Source of the DNA: Armatimonadota bacterium
GTDB taxonomy: Bacteria; Armatimonadota; Chthonomonadetes; Chthonomonadales; Chthonomonadaceae
Assembly (NCBI GenBank): GCA_028871815.1
Contig: JAGWMJ010000001.1
Span: 248,001-312,000, forward strand
Reading direction: 5' to 3'
Length of the DNA: 64,000 nucleotides
The stretch's first letter is position 1; every line of letters starts with the position of its first letter. The notes below the pieces were generated by a model. It searched no databases. It was not told the origin of the DNA and worked only from the letters and a program-made list of their open reading frames with translations. Positions 6,096 through 52,689 of the stretch are shown here, piece after piece. A program made the translations under genes and the position numbers.

Positions 6096-7793
6096 GTGGG
6101 TGATGAGCCGGTGGATGAGCCGGCGAAGTCGGTTGAGGATGGTGAGAACGGACGGCGTATAGCGTTTTGGTCCGTGGCGCGGCGCATTGCTGCCCAGTGC
6201 GCGATCTGCCTTTTGCTATTTGCAGCAGCAGTGGTATGGCGGTGGCACTTTACGCGAGGCGATTTGTGGCTGGATGAAGCGGATTACGCTACCGCAGCCA
6301 CGCGTTCGCTGGACGCGAACCGCTGGGACACTTCACACAATTCGGCCCGCGACAGCGCGCTGATAGCGCTGCGCCACTTTCACCCGCCTTTCGCTTCCGA
6401 GGTGCTGATGGTGGCGCTGAAGTTTGGCGCCGATGAGCGCACCCTGCGCATACCTGCCGTGGTTTTCGGCGCTCTTTCTGTGGTGTTAGTCTACTTGTGC
6501 GGCCTGGAAATCTTCCGCGGCCGGCGGATTCTGTCGTTCGCTTGCGCCGCTATTGTGATAGTTACTCCGGCATGTGTGCGCGCGGCATCGCACGCGCTTC
6601 CATGGTCATACATCACGTTTTGGCTGCTGCTGGATATTTGGGGGTTGGTTCGCTTTTGCCGAACCCCGAATGTAATAGCGATGGGTATTATCGGTGTTAG
6701 TTTGGGCGGCATGTTGTGCACCTCCGAAATGTTCTTTCCACAACTGTTGGGAACGGGCTTGGCCGCCCCGTTTGTGTTTGCGATTGCGTGGAGATCTGCC
6801 GGCGGACGGGCGGCCCTGGCCCGCGGACTGGCGCTCGGCGCACTGAGCTTCGTGCTGGTGTCTGCTGCATTGTTCCCCGCGGGACTTCTTGGTGGAACTT
6901 ACGCGATGCTGCATCACTACATGGTGATGGCGCACGACGAGTTCCCGGTTTCCGTTGGCCGTCGGGTTTATGACCGTGCTCCGAAGTGGAGTTACCTGTA
7001 CTGGTACTGGCACGGTTTCCGTTGGGAGTTTGTGTGGTACGTGGCTGCGATACCCGGCGCGTTAGTGCTGGCAGCCAGGCGCCGGCTCACGGCAGGCCAC
7101 GGCGCACTGGCCGCCATGGCGCTGACAATCCTCGGCACTTCGGAGGCAGCGCACATTCTTGGCCCGGAGTACTTGTGCCATGTGCTGCCGATGCTGACGC
7201 TGTTGGGCGGATTGCTTGTGGAAGCGGTGAGTGATTTGCAGGCTTACGTCGGCAGCGCTCTGGCGGTAGCCTGGATGGCGCTGTGCGCGGTGCAGCCGGG
7301 CAGCATGACCCTTGCGGGAATGGACGTGCGGTCACGAATGCCGCGCTGGGCCGCTGCGTCGCGATTCCTGGCTGCCCGATGGAAGCAGGGCGACTACATG
7401 CTGGCGCCGGCATATGCCAGCGTTGGCCGGTGGTACATGCTGCACTATGCCGGCGCAAAGGCGCAGGATTGGCAGATTGAGGCGCTGCCGAGCGGTCGCG
7501 CGCCGGCGCGGCTGCTTAGCGACATGAGGGATGGTCTTTACAAATATGCCGCGGTGGGAAGTACCTTCAGCGATACCTATACTGTGGATTGGCGGATCTC
7601 CATCCTGATGCGCCACTGGAAGGAGATATGGCACAGTGACGAACACGGAACCGGCATCAGCCGGTTGACCCTGTTTGAGATTCCGCCGGGCGTTTCGAGC
7701 CGTCACCCGCTGTGGCTGCCGCCTGTTCGAGCCAGGCGCCCGCTAACCCCAGCGGCTCCGCCCGCCGGCCTGCCGCCCATCATCTTCTTCTGA
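6096..7793 (+). CDS. GT39/ArnT-like integral membrane glycosyltransferase
   Basis: Multi-pass membrane protein of 565 residues, resembling the dolichyl/undecaprenyl-phosphate sugar glycosyltransferase superfamily (GT39/GT83). A first transmembrane helix (AQCAICLLLFAAAVVW) is followed by the acidic loop LWLDEADYA, the position and type of the catalytic acidic motif in this fold. About nine further hydrophobic segments lie between residues 115 and 405, followed by a soluble C-terminal part. GTG 6096 is 29 bases after thyX and is likely to be cotranscribed. Acceptor and donor are unknown, and the gene sits outside the exopolysaccharide operon on the other strand. Confidence 0.7.
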   Translation: MGDEPVDEPAKSVEDGENGRRIAFWSVARRIAAQCAICLLLFAAAVVWRWHFTRGDLWLDEADYATAATRSLDANRWDTSHNSARDSALIALRHFHPPFASEVLMVALKFGADERTLRIPAVVFGALSVVLVYLCGLEIFRGRRILSFACAAIVIVTPACVRAASHALPWSYITFWLLLDIWGLVRFCRTPNVIAMGIIGVSLGGMLCTSEMFFPQLLGTGLAAPFVFAIAWRSAGGRAALARGLALGALSFVLVSAALFPAGLLGGTYAMLHHYMVMAHDEFPVSVGRRVYDRAPKWSYLYWYWHGFRWEFVWYVAAIPGALVLAARRRLTAGHGALAAMALTILGTSEAAHILGPEYLCHVLPMLTLLGGLLVEAVSDLQAYVGSALAVAWMALCAVQPGSMTLAGMDVRSRMPRWAAASRFLAARWKQGDYMLAPAYASVGRWYMLHYAGAKAQDWQIEALPSGRAPARLLSDMRDGLYKYAAVGSTFSDTYTVDWRISILMRHWKEIWHSDEHGTGISRLTLFEIPPGVSSRHPLWLPPVRARRPLTPAAPPAGLPPIIFF

Positions 7794-43042: not shown

Positions 43043-45076
43043 CTACAGCGCAAAAACCAGTTTGACCACGAGGCGATTCACGAACTTTGGCGCGTTCGGG
43101 TCGCCGTAGATGATGTAGGTTTCCATGCCCTTGTTGCCGGAGTGTTGGTAGAAGAAGTAGAAGTTCGTGCCGCCAGTCTGATCCACAACCCTTCCACCCA
43201 CCGCCTGGGTTGGCGAGAACTGGTAGTTGGCCGTGAGCACGTGCTGAAACACGGTGCCGTCGCGGTTCTGGATCTCGCCATTGTAGGCTACATCCAGGTG
43301 CCTGAACAGCCGGTATGAAAAGAGCGGGTTGAGGAAGGTGGTCGGGCGGCTGCCGAGCAACCCGGTTTGCAGAATAATGCCCCATTGGTGAAACCGGTCG
43401 CTTACACCGCGGGCAATGGTGAACCCCACCGTGGCATCGGTCTGGTCGTCAAACTTGGTGTAGTCCAAACTGCCGCCAAACTGCCAATCGGCCCGGGTGA
43501 AGAACTGCGCCGACGTGGTGCCACCGCGCTGAAACCGGCGGCCATCAAAGTGGTAATTGAAATTGAGGTCTGAGCTTACGTTATATCCGCGCCACGTTCC
43601 CTTGCGCCAGTCTCCACTCCAAACGTCGTACAGCTCGAGACCGCGCCGGTCCACATACGGGATGTAACCATCGATGTCGGCGAAATCGGGCGCCACCTCC
43701 ACGTAGGCCAGTGAAGCCTGGTTCAGCTTGTCGTTATAGTTCAGGGCGGTTGCGAGCGAGTGGCCGCCGGCTGTGTTTCCGCCCGTCAGAGCGAACTGCG
43801 TGTCCTCTTCAAACTTGCCGTGGCGCACATCTTGCTCCACTTCTCCAATCGTATTGTTGTTACCGGCCTGGCTTACCTGTCCAAAGTAGAATGCCAGGTT
43901 GCTGCTTCTATTGAAGTCGTGCCGGTAGCGGCTGATAAAGTCGTTTCTTCCGTTTGCCCCGGGCGTCCATGCATCCATCACGCCCAGTGTATCCAGATCG
44001 CTCAATTTGCCGTAGGTTTTGAGCCCGCCGATGAAGCCCGGCATGTTGGGAGTATAGAGGTATTCACCTACAAAGTTGATATGAATATGATTGAGGTAGC
44101 TGCTGCCCTCCTGGAAAAACGGGCGCTCTTCGGCCACGTAGCGCTCGGTTCGTGAGAACTGGACTCCCTGAACCGCATTCTCCACATCGCCAAAGTCGGG
44201 GTTCAGGCTGCCCACCGCCGTCATCTGAGGCGAAATGGCGTAGCGGAGGTCGGCTCCGGTACGCAGGTTCATGGTTCCCCTCGTCTCGCCTGCCAGTACG
44301 TACGGCAGTACGGAGACCGTCGGGTGAAACTCCTTCTGCGGTACCTTGACGCCGGTCCACATGCCTTCCAGATTGAGGAATGTGTTGGGACCCTCCGGGC
44401 TCCATTCGCTGAGAATCTGTGTGCGGAGTTGAAACCGGCGGAACTCGATTCCAAACGTGACCGGTCCCGCCTTGACGGGATAGTTGAGCATCTTCCACGG
44501 TATGCTGATCTCCGCGCTCCAGCCGGTTTTGGTGCGTCGGGCGGCTGCGTGCCACAACCCCTCCCACTCCAGCTTGCTTCCTCGGCCACCACCGAGTTGA
44601 GCCGACGGCGTCCCGATTGCGTTTACGCTGAAGCTGGAGATATCCTGTGCGCGGTGCGAAAAGAACGGGTCTATCGAGACCTCAACGTTGTCCTCATTGT
44701 TGTTAACCGTATAGGTGTTGGGGTACTTGTTGTCGCGGACGGTCTCCCGGGCTGAGATGGTGCTGGGCTTGCTGTCGAGGCAGTTAAATGCCACATAGAT
44801 GTACTTGCTGTCGTAGAGGACCCGCGCCACCGTTTGATCGGCCACGGGGTTCCCGTTCTGCACATCCACAAAGGTGGTGGCCTCCGGCGCAGCCTTCCAT
44901 GCCGGATCGGAAAGATCGCCGTCGATGACCGGCGCGTGCGTTGTGACTTGGGCCGACAGGCTTCTGGGTGCTGGATGCTGTGCGGCGAGAGATTCAGAGC
45001 AGCCGAGCGAACAAATCAACATCCAGGCTGCCGCAGCGTGCCGCACCGGGCCTTGCTTCAATGCGGATCTCTCCAT
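43043..45076 (-). CDS. DUF5916 protein with N-terminal CBM9-like domain (copy 1)
   Basis: Exported protein of 677 residues. A signal peptide ends near SESLAAQ. Residues 40-230 form a CBM9-like beta-sandwich beginning PVIDGDLSDPAWKAA, with ARVLYDSKYIYVAFNCLDS and NNNEDNVEVSIDPF. The remainder matches the DUF5916 layout: VTFGIEFRRFQLRTQ, RYAISPQMTAVGSLNPDFGDVENAVQ, then alternating beta strands ending VVKLVFAL, like an outer-membrane barrel with a terminal aromatic/hydrophobic strand. Function of the family is not known to me. It is paralogous to the gene at 50671. ATG 45112 is an alternative start; a promoter lies at 45164-45192. Confidence 0.83.
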   Translation of the reverse strand: MERSALKQGPVRHAAAAWMLICSLGCSESLAAQHPAPRSLSAQVTTHAPVIDGDLSDPAWKAAPEATTFVDVQNGNPVADQTVARVLYDSKYIYVAFNCLDSKPSTISARETVRDNKYPNTYTVNNNEDNVEVSIDPFFSHRAQDISSFSVNAIGTPSAQLGGGRGSKLEWEGLWHAAARRTKTGWSAEISIPWKMLNYPVKAGPVTFGIEFRRFQLRTQILSEWSPEGPNTFLNLEGMWTGVKVPQKEFHPTVSVLPYVLAGETRGTMNLRTGADLRYAISPQMTAVGSLNPDFGDVENAVQGVQFSRTERYVAEERPFFQEGSSYLNHIHINFVGEYLYTPNMPGFIGGLKTYGKLSDLDTLGVMDAWTPGANGRNDFISRYRHDFNRSSNLAFYFGQVSQAGNNNTIGEVEQDVRHGKFEEDTQFALTGGNTAGGHSLATALNYNDKLNQASLAYVEVAPDFADIDGYIPYVDRRGLELYDVWSGDWRKGTWRGYNVSSDLNFNYHFDGRRFQRGGTTSAQFFTRADWQFGGSLDYTKFDDQTDATVGFTIARGVSDRFHQWGIILQTGLLGSRPTTFLNPLFSYRLFRHLDVAYNGEIQNRDGTVFQHVLTANYQFSPTQAVGGRVVDQTGGTNFYFFYQHSGNKGMETYIIYGDPNAPKFVNRLVVKLVFAL

Positions 45077-45112
45077 GCAGGCTGGTTTAGCAACGCGCGC
45101 AGCAGCCACCAT

Positions 45113-45461: not shown

Positions 45462-45893
45462 TCACCTCACCAAAAGTTGCCCCAGCGTAATAATCCAGAA
45501 GACGACGCAGGCGGCGTGAAAGACCAGGCACCCCACCATCAGCGTGCGGATGAATGCATTCCAGGCTGGGATACCGGGCCAGCGCCGCGCCAGTAATCGA
45601 ATCGGCGGCACAAAATACCCCCACACGTCAGGCTTAGACCTATGATAAACGTAACCCATGACAAACCACATTGGTGTACCGACCAGCCATGAAACTCCTA
45701 TTCTCCACTCAACACCGGTAAATGAACGTTGGCTGCGATGCATCCACGCATCCACCCCGGTCATTACACCCAGCATGGGCATACAATAGAATGCGTCGGC
45801 TAGCGCCGAGACCAGGCGTTCTCGACTGCTGCGCGGCGGGCCAGCGGCCTGAGCGGGGAACCGGCTCCGGCGACGGCGCTCCGTACCGGTCAA
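45462..45893 (-). CDS. Small membrane protein coupled to RHS cassette C (candidate immunity protein)
   Basis: Protein of 143 residues with about three membrane segments: FYCMPMLGVMTGVDAW, GVSWLVGTPMWFVMGYVY and LMVGCLVFHAACVVFWIITL. The N-terminal 30 residues are basic. ATG 45893 overlaps the stop of the cassette C C-terminal frame by four bases (ATGA), the arrangement expected for coupled translation. I recognise no family. An immunity role is inferred from position only: it directly follows a variable RHS C-terminal segment, as do unrelated membrane proteins after cassettes A and B. Confidence 0.62.
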   Translation of the reverse strand: MTGTERRRRSRFPAQAAGPPRSSRERLVSALADAFYCMPMLGVMTGVDAWMHRSQRSFTGVEWRIGVSWLVGTPMWFVMGYVYHRSKPDVWGYFVPPIRLLARRWPGIPAWNAFIRTLMVGCLVFHAACVVFWIITLGQLLVR

Positions 45894-46776
45894 TGGGTCC
45901 AGTCCCAGACGGCGGCCGCCGCGATAAACCCGACACCAGCGCCGATGGCTCCGCCTATCAGGGGGCCCTCAGGTCCGAGGAATACGCCTACCTCCGCGCC
46001 TTCTTCCGCCCCACCGACGAGGCCAGCTATAACCTCTCCGCCCTCTCCGATCTCAACCTCTGTACCGACACCTATTTCGGGGCCCGGGTCGTCCGCCACG
46101 GGAGGCCTTGGGCCAGCCTTCGGATTGAGCAACCTCCACCACGGCCGGCCAGGGAACCATCTCCTCCCGCCGATCGTTGCGCCGATTGCACCTCCCCAGC
46201 TACCGCTGATGACGGTGGCGACAGTTTCAAACCCGCACTGAAAATCAGCGGTCCAGTCAGTCGCCTTCCGTCCGCTGGGATCCACGAAGTCTGTCGGCTC
46301 ACCCCCCAATACGCGTACGGCATTTGGTCCAGCATGCTGTCGCGGCTGGCGAACCGCCCGACCTGCGGGTCGTAATAGCGCGCTCCTGCGTGCTGCAGTC
46401 CGGCGTCGCCATCGCTCTGGTAGGCCCAGTCGCCGGCGAAGTTGTACGGACTCGATGTTGAGCCACTGCTCGCGATCGTGTTGCCAAACGCATCGAAATC
46501 CTGCGTGGCCGTGGCCGTGCCGGAGCTGTTCGTCTCGGCACGGGCGGAACCCAGCCCATCGAATGCCGGGTACTCGCGGTTGCGACGGAGCAGGTCGCCG
46601 TCCTGGTTGAAGCCGGTGCTGGCGGCGCCCGTCGTCTCACGGGCCGCCGCGGGTAATCGCCATCGCAACACAGGCGCTTTATGGCGCGCGGGCGGGCGCC
46701 GACGCTGGCGGGCCCGGTCCCCCAGCGTGGCCGGAAGAGTATTTGCCGAGAACCGACTCCATCTGGCAGACACCAT
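45890..46776 (-). pseudogene. RHS tip cassette C, frameshifted at a C6 tract
   Basis: A shortened RHS tip: from about DLLRRNREYPAFDGLGSARA through ARYYDPQVGRFASRDSMLDQ and PYAYW in one frame (ATG 46776), then GGEPTDFVDPSG and a unique C-terminus in another. The switch occurs at a run of six C at 46302-46307, where cassettes A and B have sequence one base longer. Reading on without the shift ends at 46072 in an arginine-rich tail. The post-DPSG segment is about 125 residues, glycine-rich, acidic in the middle (EVEIGEGGEVIAGLVGGAEE) and hydrophobic at the end. Only about 340 bases of RHS homology remain (46270-46612). The C-terminal part could also be made from TTG 46309. Confidence 0.72.
46270..46612 (-). 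repeat. RHS tip repeat, copy C (shortened)
   Basis: Covers only the segment from LLRRN to DPSG of the tip. It is more diverged from A and B than they are from each other. Confidence 0.75.
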
Positions 46777-46796
46777 TGCTGAGCGTTCCACGCCAG

Positions 46797-47108
46797 TCAC
46801 GGCTTCGGCGCGCGCGTCCGGCGAACGAGCCACGATAAAGCCGCCAATGTCCAACCCATGCCTTCCACGATCGTGAGGAGATCCGATAGCCACGATGGTG
46901 TCAAGATAAAACGCGCCAGAAGCCAGCGCAAACCAACAACGCTCATCAACAGGCCGAGCAGGGCCGCTGGAAAGCCGGTGCGACACCTCACCTCGCGGAC
47001 CGCCTCCGATCGCGGCGTTGCAATAGCAGCTACCGTGAGCCAAACGCCGGCGGAAAGCATGGCTAGCCCCAACACGGCATGTATCTGATCAGCGGCTGCT
47101 GCCATCAC
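46797..47108 (-). CDS. Small membrane protein after RHS cassette B (candidate immunity protein)
   Basis: Protein of 103 residues with three predicted membrane helices: VLGLAMLSAGVWLTVAAIA, ALLGLLMSVVGLRWLLARFI and DLLTIVEGMGWTLAALSWLV. Two adjacent ATG codons begin the frame. It starts 135 bases after the stop of cassette B and ends 20 bases before ATG 46776 of cassette C. No family is recognised. As with the partners of A and C, an immunity role is a positional inference; the larger gap makes this pair weaker. Confidence 0.55.
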   Translation of the reverse strand: MMAAAADQIHAVLGLAMLSAGVWLTVAAIATPRSEAVREVRCRTGFPAALLGLLMSVVGLRWLLARFILTPSWLSDLLTIVEGMGWTLAALSWLVRRTRAPKP

Positions 47109-47243
47109 AACCTAAATCATGGCCAAGATCGTGGCGCGGCGGCCGCCGCGAGGCCGAAGCGCACCGACGCGCGACGGCCATACGGCTCGACTGCCCACGG
47201 GGGCGGGGCTGTTTACAGTGCAACGCGATGGCCAGATGCGGGT

Positions 47244-48248
47244 TCATAGGTCGCGCCGCAACGCCGCGATTCCGTGAGCGACTTGGTCGCCGCCGCCAAA
47301 GAGCGCAATGGCACCAATAATGAGCATAGCAGGAACGGTCACTTCGGGTCCCAGGAGCCCGATACCTACGACGATCCATCCTGCCCCGCCAACAATCTGG
47401 CCTATGTCGCCAAGCCATGGAAGCCCGAGGTGCTGCCCGGCTTCCCCAAGCCCAAGGCCGATCGGGCCCAGGCCCGTACCGCCGTCGGCGATATCCGGAT
47501 TGACTGGCGTGGACTCCGCCCCGAGACGCTTCAGAAGGCTCCAGACGAGTCCTCGCCCGCTCGGATCCACGAAATCGTTCGGTTCGCCACCGCAATAGGC
47601 GTACGGAATCTGGTCCAGCATGCTGTCGCGGCTGGCGAACCGCCCGACCTGCGGGTCGTAGTAGCGCGCTCCTACGTGCTGCAGCCCGGCGTCGCCGTTG
47701 CTCTGGTAGGCCCAATCGCCGACAAAGTTGTAGGGACTGCCGCTGCTGCCGCTGGAGGCGATCGTGTTTCCAAACGCATCGAAATCCTGCGTGGCCGTGG
47801 CCGTGCCGGAGCTGTTCGTTTCGGCGCGGGCCGAGCCGAGGCCATCGAACGCCGGATACTCGCCGTTACGCCGGAGCAGGTCGTTACCGACGGTGTAAGC
47901 TGCCGTGAACGTGCTGCCCTGCATTTCGGTTACCGGCGCGCCGCCGGCATACTGCGTGGAGGTGGTTGTGCCTGAAACGGCGCGGCTCACGCGCCGGCCT
48001 AGGGCGTCGTAGCCGAAACCGGTCACCGCCGTACCCTGCGTAATCGACTTGAGTTGCCCGTCGTAGTCGAAGGCGAGGGTGTATGCCGTGCCGGCCAGCG
48101 TGCGTCCGGTCTGTTCGCCGTTGGCGTTATACGAATAGCTGTTCGCGAATCCGCCGCTGGTCGACGTAAGCTCATCGTCGTTATCCATCGTGAAGCTTGT
48201 AGAGGTGCTTCCCACCGTTTCGCCGGTGTGGTTTCCTACCGGATCCAC
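47244..48248 (-). CDS. RHS tip cassette B with unique glycine-rich C-terminus
   Basis: RHS/YD-repeat tip of 334 residues. Repeats include FANSYSYNANGEQTGRTL, LAFDYDGQLKSITQGTAV and FGYDALGRRVSRAV; the core end has ARYYDPQVGRFASRDSMLDQ and VDPSG. After that come about 102 residues unlike cassette A: LGPIGLGLGEAGQHLGLPWL, GDIGQIVGGAGWIVVGIGLL and MLIIGAIALFGGGDQVAHG. No ATG is available; GTG 48248 is the first plausible start, although the frame is open back to the TGA at 48297 that ends the previous gene, and encodes another RHS-like stretch (RTGSNSYSISYT). It may lack its own start and be a silent cassette. Confidence 0.75.
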   Translation of the reverse strand: MDPVGNHTGETVGSTSTSFTMDNDDELTSTSGGFANSYSYNANGEQTGRTLAGTAYTLAFDYDGQLKSITQGTAVTGFGYDALGRRVSRAVSGTTTSTQYAGGAPVTEMQGSTFTAAYTVGNDLLRRNGEYPAFDGLGSARAETNSSGTATATQDFDAFGNTIASSGSSGSPYNFVGDWAYQSNGDAGLQHVGARYYDPQVGRFASRDSMLDQIPYAYCGGEPNDFVDPSGRGLVWSLLKRLGAESTPVNPDIADGGTGLGPIGLGLGEAGQHLGLPWLGDIGQIVGGAGWIVVGIGLLGPEVTVPAMLIIGAIALFGGGDQVAHGIAALRRDL

Positions 48249-48258
48249 CGTATACGAA
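47551..48258 (-). repeat. RHS tip repeat, copy B
   Basis: About 705 bases homologous to 49395-50099. The C-terminal-proximal part (47596-47986 against 49440-49830) differs at only about four positions by eye, whereas the rest differs more often. Confidence 0.85.
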
Positions 48259-48296
48259 ATGGAGTACGAGTTTGAGCCGGTCCGCGTTTCTGAACG

Positions 48297-49061
48297 TCAG
48301 GGACCGATGCTCGACTCCAGGCTTACCAGTGGCGGCGCCAACTGTGGCTCCGGCGCGCTAGCGCGCAGGAGGCCGTCCGATCTTCCAAGGTCGAGTCCGC
48401 CGGGGCGCAGCATCTCGGTATCGTGTCCAGCTGAGGTAACGGCAACCGCGCGAAGGCTCTGCTGCGCCAGTTGGGCAGCGGCCGCTGCCTCCGCCAATAT
48501 GGCGTCAGCGCTGCTGATTGCGGTAGCAAGATCGGGCATGTCGCGCCACCCTCCAACGGCGACACGTCGTCCGAGTTGTCGTCGTGCCCGTGCCAACTCC
48601 GCGGGGCTCCCGCCTAGCGACAGCGCGCGGGCCGCCGCTGCCACCGCCGTGCTGTCATGCGCCCCGAGGAGGCGGCCGATCACGTCGGGATAGCGAACAA
48701 CGAATTCCGCGCACTGCTCTGCTTCCATGGGCATCAGTTGTCGCGAAACTGCGAGGAGCGTCGGTCCGGCGCGCCCCGAGCGGAACCTTGCTCGCCGGGC
48801 GATCACCGCGAGCCCGGCTACATCAACGCTCGACGCGATCAAGCGGTCGACTTTGCGCTGTGCCCATCGCCCGATCGCTACCACTGCCACCATTTCCGCG
48901 ATGAATATGCACGGCTCTCCAACGCACATCCGTGCCAGCCAGGCGCGGCCGGGCAACTGCATGGCACACGCAAGCAGCCAGGCAATAATGCCTATCGGGA
49001 CTATGCGAACCCAGGCCGCATCGTTGACGCGATCCACTTTGCGTACGAGGTCGCTTTCCAT
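48297..49061 (-). CDS. Two-helix membrane protein after RHS cassette A (candidate immunity protein)
   Basis: Protein of 254 residues with two N-terminal membrane helices, RIVPIGIIAWLLACAMQL and CIFIAEMVAVVAIGRWA, then a soluble alanine-rich helical domain of about 190 residues (AQCAEFVVRYPDVIGRLLGAHD and LARARRQLGRRVAVGG). ATG 49061 follows the cassette A stop by five bases; a GTG at 49085 would overlap it. Its own stop (TGA, 48297-48299) is also where the RHS frame of cassette B opens. No family is recognised; the immunity role is positional inference. Confidence 0.6.
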   Translation of the reverse strand: MESDLVRKVDRVNDAAWVRIVPIGIIAWLLACAMQLPGRAWLARMCVGEPCIFIAEMVAVVAIGRWAQRKVDRLIASSVDVAGLAVIARRARFRSGRAGPTLLAVSRQLMPMEAEQCAEFVVRYPDVIGRLLGAHDSTAVAAAARALSLGGSPAELARARRQLGRRVAVGGWRDMPDLATAISSADAILAEAAAAAQLAQQSLRAVAVTSAGHDTEMLRPGGLDLGRSDGLLRASAPEPQLAPPLVSLESSIGP

Positions 49062-49066
49062 GGCTA

Positions 49067-50116
49067 TTAGAGCTTCTTGTACCACGCGGGCACTGGCTCG
49101 GTCCAGCCCGGCTTAGGCTTGATGTCGGGGTACAGGTCGCGATTCGTCTCGTATTCCATCTCTGCTGAGAAACGATGATCGCCACCGTCTGGAAACGGCA
49201 TCCCAATTCGCCGGTCAGCCTGTTGCTGACCTATGTCGAAGATGCCCCGGACGATATCAACGCAGCCGATAACAATAAGGGCGCCGCCCGCGATCGGGAA
49301 CCAAGCTGGCGCAGTTGTAATTACCAAAGGTGCACCGATCAATATGCCGCCAACTCCAAAACAGGCAAGGTCACCCATCCAGATAGGCGCCGTCCCGCTG
49401 GGATCCACGAAGTCTGTCGGTTCGCCACCGCAATAGGCGTACGGAATCTGGTCCAGCATGCTGTCGCGGCTGGCGAACCGCCCGACCTGCGGGTCGAAGT
49501 AGCGCGCTCCTACGTGCTGCAGCCCGGCGTCGCCGTTGCTCTGGTAGGCCCAATCGCCGGCAAAGTTGTAGGGACTGCCGCTGCTGCCGCTGGAGGCGAT
49601 CGTGTTTCCAAACGCATCGAAATCCTGCGTGGCCGTGGCCGTGCCGGAGCTGTTCGTTTCGGCGCGGGCCGAGCCGAGGCCATCTAACGCCGGATACTCG
49701 CTGTTACGCCGGAGCAGGTCGTTACCGACGGTGTAAGCTGCCGTGAACGTGCTGCCCTGCATTTCGGTTACCGGCGCGCCGCCGGCATACTGCGTGGAGG
49801 TGGTTGTGCCTGAAACGGCGCGGCTCACGCGGCGGCCCAGAGCGTCATAGCCGAAACCGGTCACCGCGGTACCCTGCGTGATCGACTTGAGCTGGCCATC
49901 GTAATCGAAGGCGAGGGTGTACGCCGTGCCGGCCAGCGTCCGGCCGGTCTGTTCGCCGTTTGCATTGTACGAGTAACTGTTCGCGAATCCGCCGCTGGTC
50001 GACGTAAGCTCATCGTCGTTATCCATCGTGAAGCTCGTAGAGGTGCTTCCCACCGTTTCGCCGGTGCGGTTTCCTACCGGATCCACCGTATACGAAATCG
50101 AAACCAAAGTTATCAT
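49067..50116 (-). CDS. RHS tip cassette A with unique hydrophobic C-terminus
   Basis: RHS/YD-repeat tip of 349 residues. Repeats and core end are as in cassette B (VGRFASRDSMLDQIPYAYCG, then VDPSG). The unique C-terminus of about 108 residues has two hydrophobic, glycine-rich stretches (GVGGILIGAPLVITTAPAW and AGGALIVIGCVDIVRGIFDI) and a charged tail (DGGDHRFSAEMEYETNRDLY). ATG 50116 lies inside the -10 element of a promoter, so the mRNA may begin after it; GTG 50086 is the next good start. Upstream RHS core is missing: homology to B breaks at 50099 and unrelated AT-rich sequence begins. A full RHS protein is usually well over 1000 residues. Confidence 0.75.
   Translation of the reverse strand: MITLVSISYTVDPVGNRTGETVGSTSTSFTMDNDDELTSTSGGFANSYSYNANGEQTGRTLAGTAYTLAFDYDGQLKSITQGTAVTGFGYDALGRRVSRAVSGTTTSTQYAGGAPVTEMQGSTFTAAYTVGNDLLRRNSEYPALDGLGSARAETNSSGTATATQDFDAFGNTIASSGSSGSPYNFAGDWAYQSNGDAGLQHVGARYFDPQVGRFASRDSMLDQIPYAYCGGEPTDFVDPSGTAPIWMGDLACFGVGGILIGAPLVITTAPAWFPIAGGALIVIGCVDIVRGIFDIGQQQADRRIGMPFPDGGDHRFSAEMEYETNRDLYPDIKPKPGWTEPVPAWYKKL
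49395..50099 (-). repeat. RHS tip repeat, copy A
   Basis: Homologous to 47551-48258 (copy B) and, in part, to 46270-46612 (copy C, roughly 90 percent alike by eye). The right boundary is abrupt, just after TACGAAAT. Confidence 0.85.
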
Positions 50117-50140
50117 AATCTAACAGAACAAGCCTGTCAA
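50112..50140 (-). promoter_or_regulatory. Promoter overlapping the start of RHS cassette A
   Basis: Minus strand: -35 TTGACA (50135-50140), 17-base spacer, -10 TATGAT (50112-50117). The -10 includes the only ATG of cassette A. Transcription would start near 50105, ahead of a GGTGGATCC-containing GTG at 50086. Confidence 0.7.
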
Positions 50141-50670
50141 GGAGTATACGACCTTTATCTGAAAATGTTCGCACGCACGCGGCCTTTAAAACGTTAAGCG
50201 AGTTTTTGGGGCGAAAAAGTTCCATCCGCGCGACTTCTTTTTGTTCTTTTTGACGTTTAAGAACGGAAATGCCTGGCAGCGAGCGCCGGCTGCCGGAACC
50301 GGAACCATCAACAGCCGATCCTTCGGCGTTGCTCGGGAACCGGCGCTGGAGGGGTCCGGAATGACGAAGCGGGGCAGGATGCCAGAACGCGGCGTGGTTG
50401 ATTCCGCGGCCCGAGCTGCAGGGCCTCATCCTGAGGCGAGATTCGTCAATCTCCGAGCCGACTTCGGCCAGTGGCCCGATAGGTACCACTGGCTTTATGG
50501 CGCGGGCCTGTAGGCCACAGCCGCACCGCAGCCGGCCCAGGATGGTACCAATAATGCCTGCGGCCCGTATGGCATGCGCCAGAGGCCGTTGAGGTTCTGG
50601 GGGTGATTGACAGAGCGATATGCGAACTGTGGCTGGCGGCTGCGCCTACACTGCACGACATCGGCGGCGG
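50141..50670. other. Intergenic region between DUF5916 copy 2 and the RHS array
   Basis: About 530 bases without a supported gene. The left part (50141-50275) is clearly more AT-rich than its surroundings and has T-rich tracts near 50236-50260. A REP-like palindrome lies at 50281-50350, bounded by GCGCCGG and CCGGCGC. No RHS homology is visible. Confidence 0.55.
50281..50350. repeat. REP-like palindromic element
   Basis: Contains GGAACCATCAACAGCCGATC followed by CTTCGGCGTTGCTCGGGA. A close relative at 27185-27233 reads GAACCATTAACTGCCGATCC followed by CTCGGCTTCGCTCGGGA. Both are palindromic and intergenic. A third, inverted, partial copy lies at 45213-45236. Confidence 0.6.
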
Positions 50671-52689
50671 TTAGAGTGCAAATACCAGCTTCACTGCAAC
50701 CAGATTTGTCCATCGCTGCGCGTTGGGATCGCCGAGGATGATGTAGGTCTCGGTGCCCTTACCGCCGGAGTGCCTGTAGAACAGAAAGCCATTGGTGCCG
50801 CCGGTTTGCGCTACCAGGCGGCCACCGAAGGCCACCGTGGGCGATACCTGATAGTTCAAAGACACCACGTGCTGTTGGGTGCGGCCATCCCGGTACAGAA
50901 GCGCGCCGGCGTACGTGATGTCCAGCTTGTGCAGGAAGCGGTATGAGAACGAAGGCTGCACGAATGTGGAGGGTCGACTGCCCTGCAGGCCGTGAAGTAT
51001 GGATATGCCCCAGGTATGAAACCGGTCCAGCACGCCGCGCGTCACCGATAGCATCATGGTAGCGTCGGTTTGCGTATCAAACTTGTCGTAATTGATTTCG
51101 CCGCCCAACTGCCAGTTCGATTGGGTTACAAACTGAAACGCCGTATCAATGCCGCGCTGATACGGTGCACCGCTGTAGTGCCAACCGAATTGAGGAATCG
51201 ACTGCACATTGAACGATCGCCACGGTCCATGCCTCCAGGCGGCCGCCCAGTTCTCGAACAGAACTACCGAGCGCTCATCGTTAAATGGCACGTAGCCATC
51301 TTCATCGACAAAGTCCGGCGCCACGTCGGTGAGACCGATGCCGGTTGTATTCAGCTTGTCCTCATACACCTCGAAGGTCTGGAAGGAGTGGCCGCCGGCG
51401 GTGTTTCCACCGCTGATGCCCAGCTGCGTATCGGCCTCCAGTTTCCCCCACCGTTGGTCATGCTCCAGCAGGCCGACGGTGTTGTTATCGCCTGGGGCGG
51501 TTCGCTGCACCAGCGTCAAGGCGAGATTCGCGGTCGGTGAAAAGTCGTGCCGGATCCGCGTGGCCAGGTCGGATCTGCTGCCGGGGGTCTCGGTTTCGAG
51601 GGCAACCAGCGTATCACTGTGCGTCACATTGCCATACACCTTGCCGCCCAGAATGAAGCCTGGTATGCGCTGGGAGTAGAAATAGTTTCCAATAAGATTG
51701 AAGTTGTTGTTGCCGAATAGCTCGTTACCTTCAACGAAGAAGGGGCGCTGGTCCTGAAGGAAAAGCTCCGAGTGAGAGAACTGAATCCCCTGCACCGCGC
51801 CTTCCACCGTTCCAAAATCGGGATTCAGTGCTGCCACAGCCGTGAGCTGTGGTGAGATGGGGTAGCGCGCATCCATGCCGATCCGCAGGCTCATCGCGCC
51901 AGCCCGTTCAGCCGGCAAAAGGTAGGGCAGCAGCGAGAGACGAGGCTTGAACCTGCCGGCCGGCGGTACGACGCCGGTCCAGATCCCCTCGCGGGCGGTG
52001 AACACCTGCGGACCCAGATTGCTCCATTCGCTCAAGAGCGCGGTGCGCGTCTGGAACCGCGTGAAGTTGATGCCAAAATCGATAGGCTTGTTGGATTTTG
52101 GGTAGTTGAGGATCCGCCACGGGATCCGGAACTCCGCCTGCCAACCCGTTGGCGTCCGCTTTACCGCTGCCTGCCATAACCCCTCCCACTCCACCTTGGC
52201 GGCTCGCCCGCCTCCCAGGAGCGCCGACGGCGTGCCGATTGCATTTACCGAGAAGCGTGAGATGTCGCTGTCGCGGTGGGAGAGGAAGGGGTCGAGCCTT
52301 ACTTCCACGTTGTCTTCGGTATCGTAGGAGCCGTTGTTCTGGTTCTGATATTTGCTGTCGCGGACTGTTTCACGGGCGGTGATGGAGGCCGGCTGGTTGT
52401 CGGTACAGCGGAATGCAACATAGATGCAGCGGCTGTCGTACACAACCATGGCGACGGTTTGATCCGGCGCTGGCCGATCGTTCTGCTCGTCGGTAAACAT
52501 CCTGGCCGTGGGCGCTGATTTCCAGCATGGATCAGACAGGTCGCCATCAATCACCGGTGGAGTGGCCGTGCGAACCGCTGCGATATGGCGGCTTCCATTG
52601 GCCTGGGCGCTTGCGGGCGAGCCGTACACGGTCGGTGGTGCGACCACGAGCAGGACGGCCGTAATGAATCGCGTATTCGAGTTGTGCAT
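50671..52689 (-). CDS. DUF5916 protein with N-terminal CBM9-like domain (copy 2)
   Basis: Exported protein of 672 residues, paralogous along its length to the gene at 43043. Signal peptide ITAVLLVVAPPTVYGSPASA; CBM9-like start PVIDGDLSDPCWKSAP and SRCIYVAFRCTDNQP; then RYPISPQLTAVAALNPDFG (copy 1 has RYAISPQMTAVGSLNPDFG), and the same ending VKLVFAL. These blocks suggest a beta-barrel whose substrate or partner is unknown. The two copies flank the RHS array and share its strand. ATG 52689 gives a clean signal peptide. It is divergent from mlaE across a region with an inverted repeat. Confidence 0.83.
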   Translation of the reverse strand: MHNSNTRFITAVLLVVAPPTVYGSPASAQANGSRHIAAVRTATPPVIDGDLSDPCWKSAPTARMFTDEQNDRPAPDQTVAMVVYDSRCIYVAFRCTDNQPASITARETVRDSKYQNQNNGSYDTEDNVEVRLDPFLSHRDSDISRFSVNAIGTPSALLGGGRAAKVEWEGLWQAAVKRTPTGWQAEFRIPWRILNYPKSNKPIDFGINFTRFQTRTALLSEWSNLGPQVFTAREGIWTGVVPPAGRFKPRLSLLPYLLPAERAGAMSLRIGMDARYPISPQLTAVAALNPDFGTVEGAVQGIQFSHSELFLQDQRPFFVEGNELFGNNNFNLIGNYFYSQRIPGFILGGKVYGNVTHSDTLVALETETPGSRSDLATRIRHDFSPTANLALTLVQRTAPGDNNTVGLLEHDQRWGKLEADTQLGISGGNTAGGHSFQTFEVYEDKLNTTGIGLTDVAPDFVDEDGYVPFNDERSVVLFENWAAAWRHGPWRSFNVQSIPQFGWHYSGAPYQRGIDTAFQFVTQSNWQLGGEINYDKFDTQTDATMMLSVTRGVLDRFHTWGISILHGLQGSRPSTFVQPSFSYRFLHKLDITYAGALLYRDGRTQQHVVSLNYQVSPTVAFGGRLVAQTGGTNGFLFYRHSGGKGTETYIILGDPNAQRWTNLVAVKLVFAL

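What the first reader, a model, noticed from the sequence alone, without database searches (positions are those of the whole stretch)
45462..50116. Array of three RHS-tip cassettes, each with a different hydrophobic C-terminus and a different membrane-protein partner
The same RHS tip ending in DPSG occurs three times on one strand. Each is followed by an unrelated segment of about 100-125 residues that is glycine-rich and hydrophobic, and then by an unrelated small membrane protein. A constant tip, variable end and variable partner is the logic of polymorphic toxin/immunity modules. None of these ends looks like the nuclease, deaminase or peptidase toxins common in RHS proteins; membrane-active ends paired with membrane-embedded partners would be a less described type. 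Toxin and immunity roles are not shown by sequence.
Basis: partly seen in the sequence, partly recalled or inferred. Interest (0 to 1): 0.8.

Follow-up and report, generated by a model that had tools for sequence, protein, structure and literature searches.

The report
Mini-Rhs toxin cassettes with membrane tails
A bacterium of the Armatimonadota carries about two dozen shortened Rhs toxin genes in arrays; each array's first gene is complete and kept by selection, and most end in a different membrane-seeking tail followed by what looks like its own protective protein, although no full-length delivery protein for them was found.

Summary
Three near-identical Rhs tips lie on the minus strand; identity drops from 83-97% to chance exactly at DPSG, and each is followed by a different hydrophobic tail (CT) and a different membrane-protein gene. 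Corrections: tip 3 is N-truncated and frameshifted, and the first partner is a 254-aa two-TM protein, not a small one. The window holds one of eight such arrays (24 cassettes) in a 3.7-Mb Chthonomonadaceae-like (Armatimonadota) genome. Seven arrays start with a 'head' gene that has its own conserved leader and ATG, a tip under strong purifying selection (dN/dS 0.08) and no indels. Followers ('tails') lack the leader and most are broken. Tail and partner recur as linked pairs in separate arrays, and CT-A recurs in another genus. Neither a full-length parent, a T6SS sheath nor a contractile-injection baseplate was found. Best reading: orphan Rhs polymorphic toxin/immunity cassettes with mostly membrane-active toxins. 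Both ideas are known separately (orphan rhsCT/rhsI; Tse5/Tsi5; CDI ionophores). New here are free-standing, selected mini-Rhs genes with a dedicated leader, replicated over seven loci without a parent. Toxicity, immunity and delivery are not shown.

The parts
50117..50345 (-). Leader of the head cassette; proximal 110 bp (50117-50225) strongly conserved; holds TTGACA-17-TATGAT (50140-50112, 11/12), which overlaps the start codon
   Evidence: Seven-way alignment; occurs only at the seven heads in the genome apart from one 37-nt partial match; proximal JC distance 0.17 vs 0.45 distal and dS 0.68 in the adjoining tip; promoter scan
49394..50116 (-). Head cassette A, Rhs tip (residues 1-241, ATG start, ends DPSG)
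   Evidence: TIGR03696 5.5e-14; substitutions in codons 1-10 of seven heads by codon position [12,0,90]; head tips dN/dS 0.08 over the last 110 codons
49067..49393 (-). CT-A: 108-aa tail, helical hairpin (two TM-like segments) plus polar C-terminal part
   Evidence: KD segments 9-27 and 34-52; AF2 helices 6-24 and 31-62, pLDDT about 70-76 there, low overall; dN/dS 0.26; homologue in G006
48297..49061 (-). Partner A, 254 aa: two TM segments and a helical C-terminal domain; putative immunity protein
   Evidence: KD; linked homologue in the C9 array, 70% id; dN/dS 0.61; G006 neighbour: shuffle z 4.45, hhalign not significant
47556..48296 (-). Tail cassette B: Rhs tip with an open frame but no leader; upstream remnant of an older Rhs repeat (ETRTGSNSYSI)
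   Evidence: 97% identical to tip A; upstream alignment
47244..47555 (-). CT-B: 103-aa hydrophobic tail
   Evidence: KD max 1.94; no relative in the fetched loci of related genomes
46797..47108 (-). Partner B, 103 aa, three TM-like segments
   Evidence: KD; no family match above cut-off
46271..46640 (-). Tail cassette C: N-truncated Rhs tip with a frameshift near 46300-46312
   Evidence: tblastn frame change; ORF list
45890..46270 (-). CT-C: 126-aa glycine-zipper-rich tail
   Evidence: six GxxxGxxxG, TM-like segments; in-frame copy on the C1-end head, 83% id, dN/dS 0.31
45462..45893 (-). Partner C, 143 aa, three TM-like segments; start overlaps the CT-C stop
   Evidence: KD; linked homologue in the C1-end array, 82% id, dN/dS 0.37

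Best explanation
The region is an array of orphan Rhs polymorphic toxin/immunity cassettes. A constant 240-residue Rhs tip is joined at DPSG to one of many tails; most tails are predicted to insert into membranes and, by analogy, to form pores or ion leaks. Each tail is followed by its own, mostly membrane-embedded, neutralising protein. The first cassette of an array is a complete stand-alone mini-Rhs gene expressed from a conserved leader. The following cassettes are mostly silent, decaying copies that keep tail and partner together and can serve as stored toxin/immunity variants, brought behind the expressed leader and tip by recombination across the shared tip. Shown by sequence: the constant/variable boundary, head/tail asymmetry, selection on head tips and leader, linked recurrence of tail-partner pairs. 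Inferred: toxicity, immunity, membrane action, recombinational switching, and that the product acts inside the producing cell (toxin-antitoxin-like) or is exported by an unknown route.
For: Sharp boundary at DPSG. Pairs A, C, D and E recur as units. CT-A on the same tip family in genus g3. Seven heads share the leader. Heads are translated from the ATG. 7/7 heads vs 1/17 tails have an intact tip (Fisher p 2e-5). dN/dS of tips 0.08 in heads, 0.15 in tails (label permutation p 0.03), no indels in heads. Proximal leader distance 0.17 vs dS 0.68. 12/17 CTs have TM-strength segments in frame vs 2/85 off frame. Precedents: orphan rhs/cdi modules (PMC3150448), Rhs toxins driven by internal promoters (PMC7043789), Tse5/Tsi5 (PMC9637101), CDI ionophores (PMC11630599).
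Against: No experiment. CT-B and partner B have no relative in the loci compared, and CT-C none outside this genome among 291 Armatimonadota genomes. Some CTs (C9 t2, C8 t1) are not hydrophobic. The head protein has no signal peptide visible by eye, and no delivery system was found, so an intercellular role lacks a route. Partner-A homology across genera is weak. The promoter-like hexamers overlap the start codon, so the true promoter is unresolved. Pairwise NG86 dN/dS is crude at dS 0.7.
Confidence: 0.68

Rival explanations
1. Classic orphan reservoir: the cassettes were displaced from a full-length secreted Rhs gene that still exists but lies in an assembly gap; heads are fragments and delivery is by the parent.
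For: Tails keep older upstream Rhs repeat sequence. Relatives have full-length Rhs of 1.0-1.8 kaa with Sec- or Tat-like N-termini. Several contig ends fall inside Rhs tips.
Against: A full-length 1321-aa Rhs query finds its N-terminal 900 residues at one place only in the genome (C5, a Tat-type singleton), while the other hits cover only roughly residues 850-1169. Heads have their own conserved leader and start, which displaced fragments lack (PMC3150448).
Confidence: 0.2
2. Decaying debris: remnants of duplicated Rhs genes without function.
For: Most tails are truncated or frameshifted, including cassette C. Tip dN/dS is higher in tails. Several lone tip remnants.
Against: Heads: dN/dS 0.08 at dS 0.68 without indels. 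CTs and partners of A and C have dN/dS 0.26-0.61. The leader is constrained.
Confidence: 0.06
3. The hydrophobic tails are translocation or anchoring segments rather than the toxic principle: the glycine-zipper hairpin inserts the protein into a membrane and a polar part (for example the invariant end of CT-A) does the work.
For: CT-A: the polar end is far better conserved (87% aa, dN/dS 0.14) than the hairpin (54%, 0.36). A glycine zipper acts in translocation of Tde1 (title and abstract of PMC10240207).
Against: Several CTs are almost entirely hydrophobic (C8_2, C20_3, C2_2). Partners are mostly membrane proteins, and partner A diverges most in its TM half, as does CT-A.
Confidence: 0.2
4. 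Immunity reservoir: the selected product is the partner; the head leader serves to express protection against relatives' toxins.
For: Orphan CdiI is expressed while orphan CdiA-CT is not in E. coli EC93 (PMC3150448). Partner frames stay open behind broken tips, for example cassette C.
Against: Head tip and CT are under stronger purifying selection than partner A (0.08 and 0.26 vs 0.61).
Confidence: 0.12

Closest known systems
Orphan rhsCT/rhsI and cdiA-CT/cdiI modules (PMC3150448; PMC3967940)
   Same: Tandem fragments with a constant region, polymorphic C-terminus and cognate downstream gene; tails lack starts and keep variable lengths of upstream core
   Different: There they follow a full-length delivery gene; here seven arrays are headed by a complete mini-gene with its own leader and ATG, and no parent was found
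Salmonella Rhs toxins expressed from the internal P2 promoter as TA modules (PMC7043789)
   Same: A conserved promoter before the DPxG boundary drives many different Rhs CTs in the producing cell
   Different: There the promoter lies within an rhs reading frame next to a full-length gene and T6SS; here the leader lies outside the Rhs reading frame and is conserved over seven loci
Tse5/Tsi5, pore-forming Rhs effector of Pseudomonas aeruginosa (PMC9637101, PMC10684867)
   Same: Rhs tip with DPxG boundary, membrane-inserting CT, TM immunity protein; [quoted passage not shown]
   Different: Full-length T6SS-delivered Rhs protein; here a 350-aa protein without N-terminal part and no VipB in the genome. 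No sequence similarity of the CTs was looked for directly
CDI ionophore toxins and hydrophobic CdiI proteins (PMC11630599)
   Same: Many polymorphic membrane toxins with polymorphic small membrane immunity proteins
   Different: Delivered on CdiA; five-helix bundles with two-helix immunity; here CTs look like hairpins or glycine zippers on Rhs tips

Membership tests
Rhs/YD-repeat proteins | Rhs-associated core domain ending in DPxG | tested here: met
   TIGR03696 E 5.5e-14 and 6.5e-14, above cut-off; the usual L after DPxG is absent
Rhs/YD-repeat proteins | Long N-terminal shell and delivery region | tested here: not met
   Heads start at residue about 914 of a 1321-aa relative; TAG stop two codons upstream of the ATG
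Polymorphic toxin/immunity systems | Constant N-part, variable CT, linked cognate downstream gene | tested here: met
Polymorphic toxin/immunity systems | CT toxic and neutralised specifically by its partner | not testable with these tools
   Needs expression assays
Orphan rhsCT/rhsI modules | Truncated copies lacking translation start, downstream of a full-length gene | tested here: inconclusive
   Tails fit; heads have leader and start; no parent found, assembly gaps remain
Membrane-active Rhs/CDI toxins (Tse5, CDI ionophores) | CT inserts into membrane and dissipates potential | tested here: inconclusive
   Hydropathy and AF2 hairpin only; activity untested
T6SS or contractile-injection Rhs effectors | T6SS sheath or baseplate in the genome | tested here: not met
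   PF05943 and PF04865 absent from a 98%-complete genome
Type II-like toxin-antitoxin (internal Rhs toxin) | Both genes expressed in the producing cell | not testable with these tools
   Leader and codon evidence suggest expression of the head; no transcript data

The most novel reading that the evidence does not exclude
A dispersed family of free-standing mini-Rhs genes, each with a dedicated conserved leader, works without any full-length Rhs parent or known injection system: an intracellular membrane-targeting toxin-antitoxin or defence family whose arrays act as switchable cassette stores.
Probability: 0.3. Interest if true: 0.75.

Novelty: new variant of a known kind. Interest (0 to 1): 0.58.

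Why it matters
Orphan Rhs tips are usually treated as spare parts of a delivered toxin. Here the shortened gene itself is the conserved unit: leader and tip are under purifying selection at seven loci while followers decay, and no delivery protein was found. That makes a concrete question testable: do orphan Rhs toxins have a life of their own as intracellular toxin-antitoxin, defence or addiction modules? It also gives a sizeable set of candidate membrane toxins and matching membrane immunity proteins from a phylum for which the paper library returned no polymorphic-toxin study.

Tried and rejected
Pfam and NCBIfam scans of all CTs and partners of the window, and Pfam scans of partners in the other arrays: nothing above cut-off except the Rhs core; sub-cut-off TPR and aspartyl-protease hits in other arrays. 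PDB sequence search of CT-A and partner A: nothing. Rfam: nothing. A conserved upstream ORF in the leader was tested and rejected as coding (dN/dS 0.91; differences spread over codon positions). RNA structure of the leader: no useful covariation. Shared right end of arrays, which would make them a transposon: none found. Leader in the fetched arrays of relatives: not found. The G265 hit to CT-A is a chance match in an unrelated SIS-like protein. Genome-contig scan with the tip: none confirmed. AF2 of partner A: low confidence, pLDDT 51, so no fold search was made. In one search the comparison with CTs on other tips of relatives is not used as evidence: that set was picked by hand and leaves out multi-TM arrays. 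TEN_YD-shell profile search was uninformative (it rings below cut-off in only one control genome).
Full report
What is there. On the minus strand between 50345 and 45462 lie three cassettes, each an Rhs tip, a tail (CT) and a downstream gene. Tips A and B match the Rhs-associated core model; tip C aligns at 81%. Identity between cassettes with unrelated tails stays at 0.83-0.97 up to DPSG in most pairs tested and falls to background in the next 30 nt. Cassette A (349 aa) is intact. B has an open tip frame but no leader. C is N-truncated and frameshifted just before DPSG, so its tail is no longer in frame with its tip. Partner A is a 254-aa protein with two TM segments and a helical domain; partners B and C are 3-TM proteins of 103 and 143 aa.

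Genome context. The window belongs to a 3.68-Mb, 22-contig, 98%-complete genome. The closest named relative of a window housekeeping protein (sulfate adenylyltransferase) is a Chthonomonadaceae bacterium at 65%, so I place it in or near that family (Armatimonadota); this is a single-gene placement. The same tip family occurs 24 times in eight arrays, plus two lone remnants.

Head and tail cassettes. Seven arrays begin with a cassette carrying the same leader; a genome-wide DNA search finds the leader only there, apart from one 37-nt partial match. For two of the seven, head half and tail half lie on different contigs (C4/C5 and C1/C20), broken inside the repeated tip. Differences among the seven heads in codons 1-10 fall 12, 0 and 90 on codon positions 1, 2 and 3, with an in-frame TAG just upstream, so the gene starts at that ATG (MITLVSISYT). 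Heads have no indels in the last 110 tip codons and dN/dS 0.08 at dS 0.68; tails have 0.15 (label permutation p 0.03) and many indels. By manual classification, 7/7 heads but 1/17 tails have an intact tip (p 2e-5, or 3e-4 if the C9 head with an in-frame deletion is counted as broken). The proximal 110 bp of the leader differ at JC distance 0.17, against 0.45 for the distal part and a synonymous 0.68 next door. So leader and head are maintained and tails decay. The best promoter match in the region (TTGACA-17-TATGAT, 11/12) overlaps the start codon and is therefore not necessarily the one used.

Pairs. CT and partner travel together. Pair A recurs as C9 cassette 3, and pair C as the C1-end head. 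In pair D, C1-end cassettes 2 and 3 have related CTs and related partners; in pair E, related partners follow C9 cassette 1 (two copies) and C1-end cassette 4. dN/dS: CT-A 0.26, partner A 0.61, CT-C 0.31, partner C 0.37, partner E 0.23-0.33, CT-D 0.84 and partner D 0.58. CT-A and partner A both diverge most in their TM halves. In genus g3 (G006) a CT-A homologue sits on the same tip family, followed by a protein with the same two-TM-plus-helical layout and weak but non-random similarity to partner A (shuffle z 4.45, 0/1000; hhalign not significant). CT-B and partner B were not found in the fetched relatives, and CT-C was not found in 290 other Armatimonadota genomes.

Nature of the tails. Of 17 CTs tested, 12 have a TM-strength segment in the true frame; only 2 of 85 other-frame readings do. 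Several carry glycine zippers. AF2 gives CT-A a two-helix hairpin at moderate confidence, with a disordered polar end.

Delivery. No VipB/T6SS sheath and no Baseplate_J. A full-length secreted Rhs from a relative (1321 aa) matches its N-terminal 900 residues at one locus only (C5, a Tat-type singleton), while the other hits cover only roughly residues 850-1169, the tip region. Relatives do have full-length Rhs genes with apparent Sec- or Tat-type N-termini. A lost or gapped parent cannot be excluded because contigs break in these repeats.

Mechanism. Most likely these are orphan Rhs polymorphic toxin/immunity cassettes with mostly membrane-active toxins. The head is made in the cell and would need its partner, as Rhs toxins expressed from internal promoters act as toxin-antitoxin pairs in Salmonella (PMC7043789) and as Tse5-CT is toxic from the cytoplasm (PMC9637101). 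Tails would be a store of CT/partner pairs, as proposed for CDI and Rhs orphans (PMC3150448). The sequence supports structure, pairing and selection; activity, protection and use are inference.

Novelty. Orphan arrays and membrane-active Rhs or CDI toxins are known. The variant here is a free-standing mini-Rhs head with a dedicated conserved leader, replicated at seven loci and maintained by selection without a detectable parent or injection system.

Noticed in passing
window 43043-45112 and 50671-52689: The array lies between two related same-strand genes (66% nt identity over 794 nt) that look like DUF5916-type carbohydrate-binding outer-membrane proteins (family name from memory, not searched).
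   Followed up: no
L022 (C9 array, cassette 2) and L023 (C1 end): One non-hydrophobic CT is paired with a large retropepsin-like partner (Asp_protease_2, E 0.014, below cut-off) in which I could not see the catalytic D-T/S-G; a relative of this partner lies in the C1-end array.
   Followed up: partly
L035, L039: The same genome has arrays of a second Rhs tip family (RYYDPAEGRFVNRDPIGMAGGVNVYGY) with soluble ends, one resembling an L,D-transpeptidase-type toxin by eye (L035 7799-8419).
   Followed up: no
L072, L075 (G005 C51, G006 C587): Two related species carry arrays on another Rhs tip family whose ends look like multi-TM proteins, one of them (REWKRPDL...) shared between the two species.
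   Followed up: no
L022 oriented 6499-7667: The C9 head is followed by two tandem, 60% identical copies of its partner gene, as if immunity had been duplicated.
   Followed up: partly
G000 contigs C1 end, C4 start, C5 end, C7 end, C13 start, C20 start: Many contig ends of this assembly fall inside Rhs tips, so the number of arrays and cassettes is probably a minimum.
   Followed up: partly
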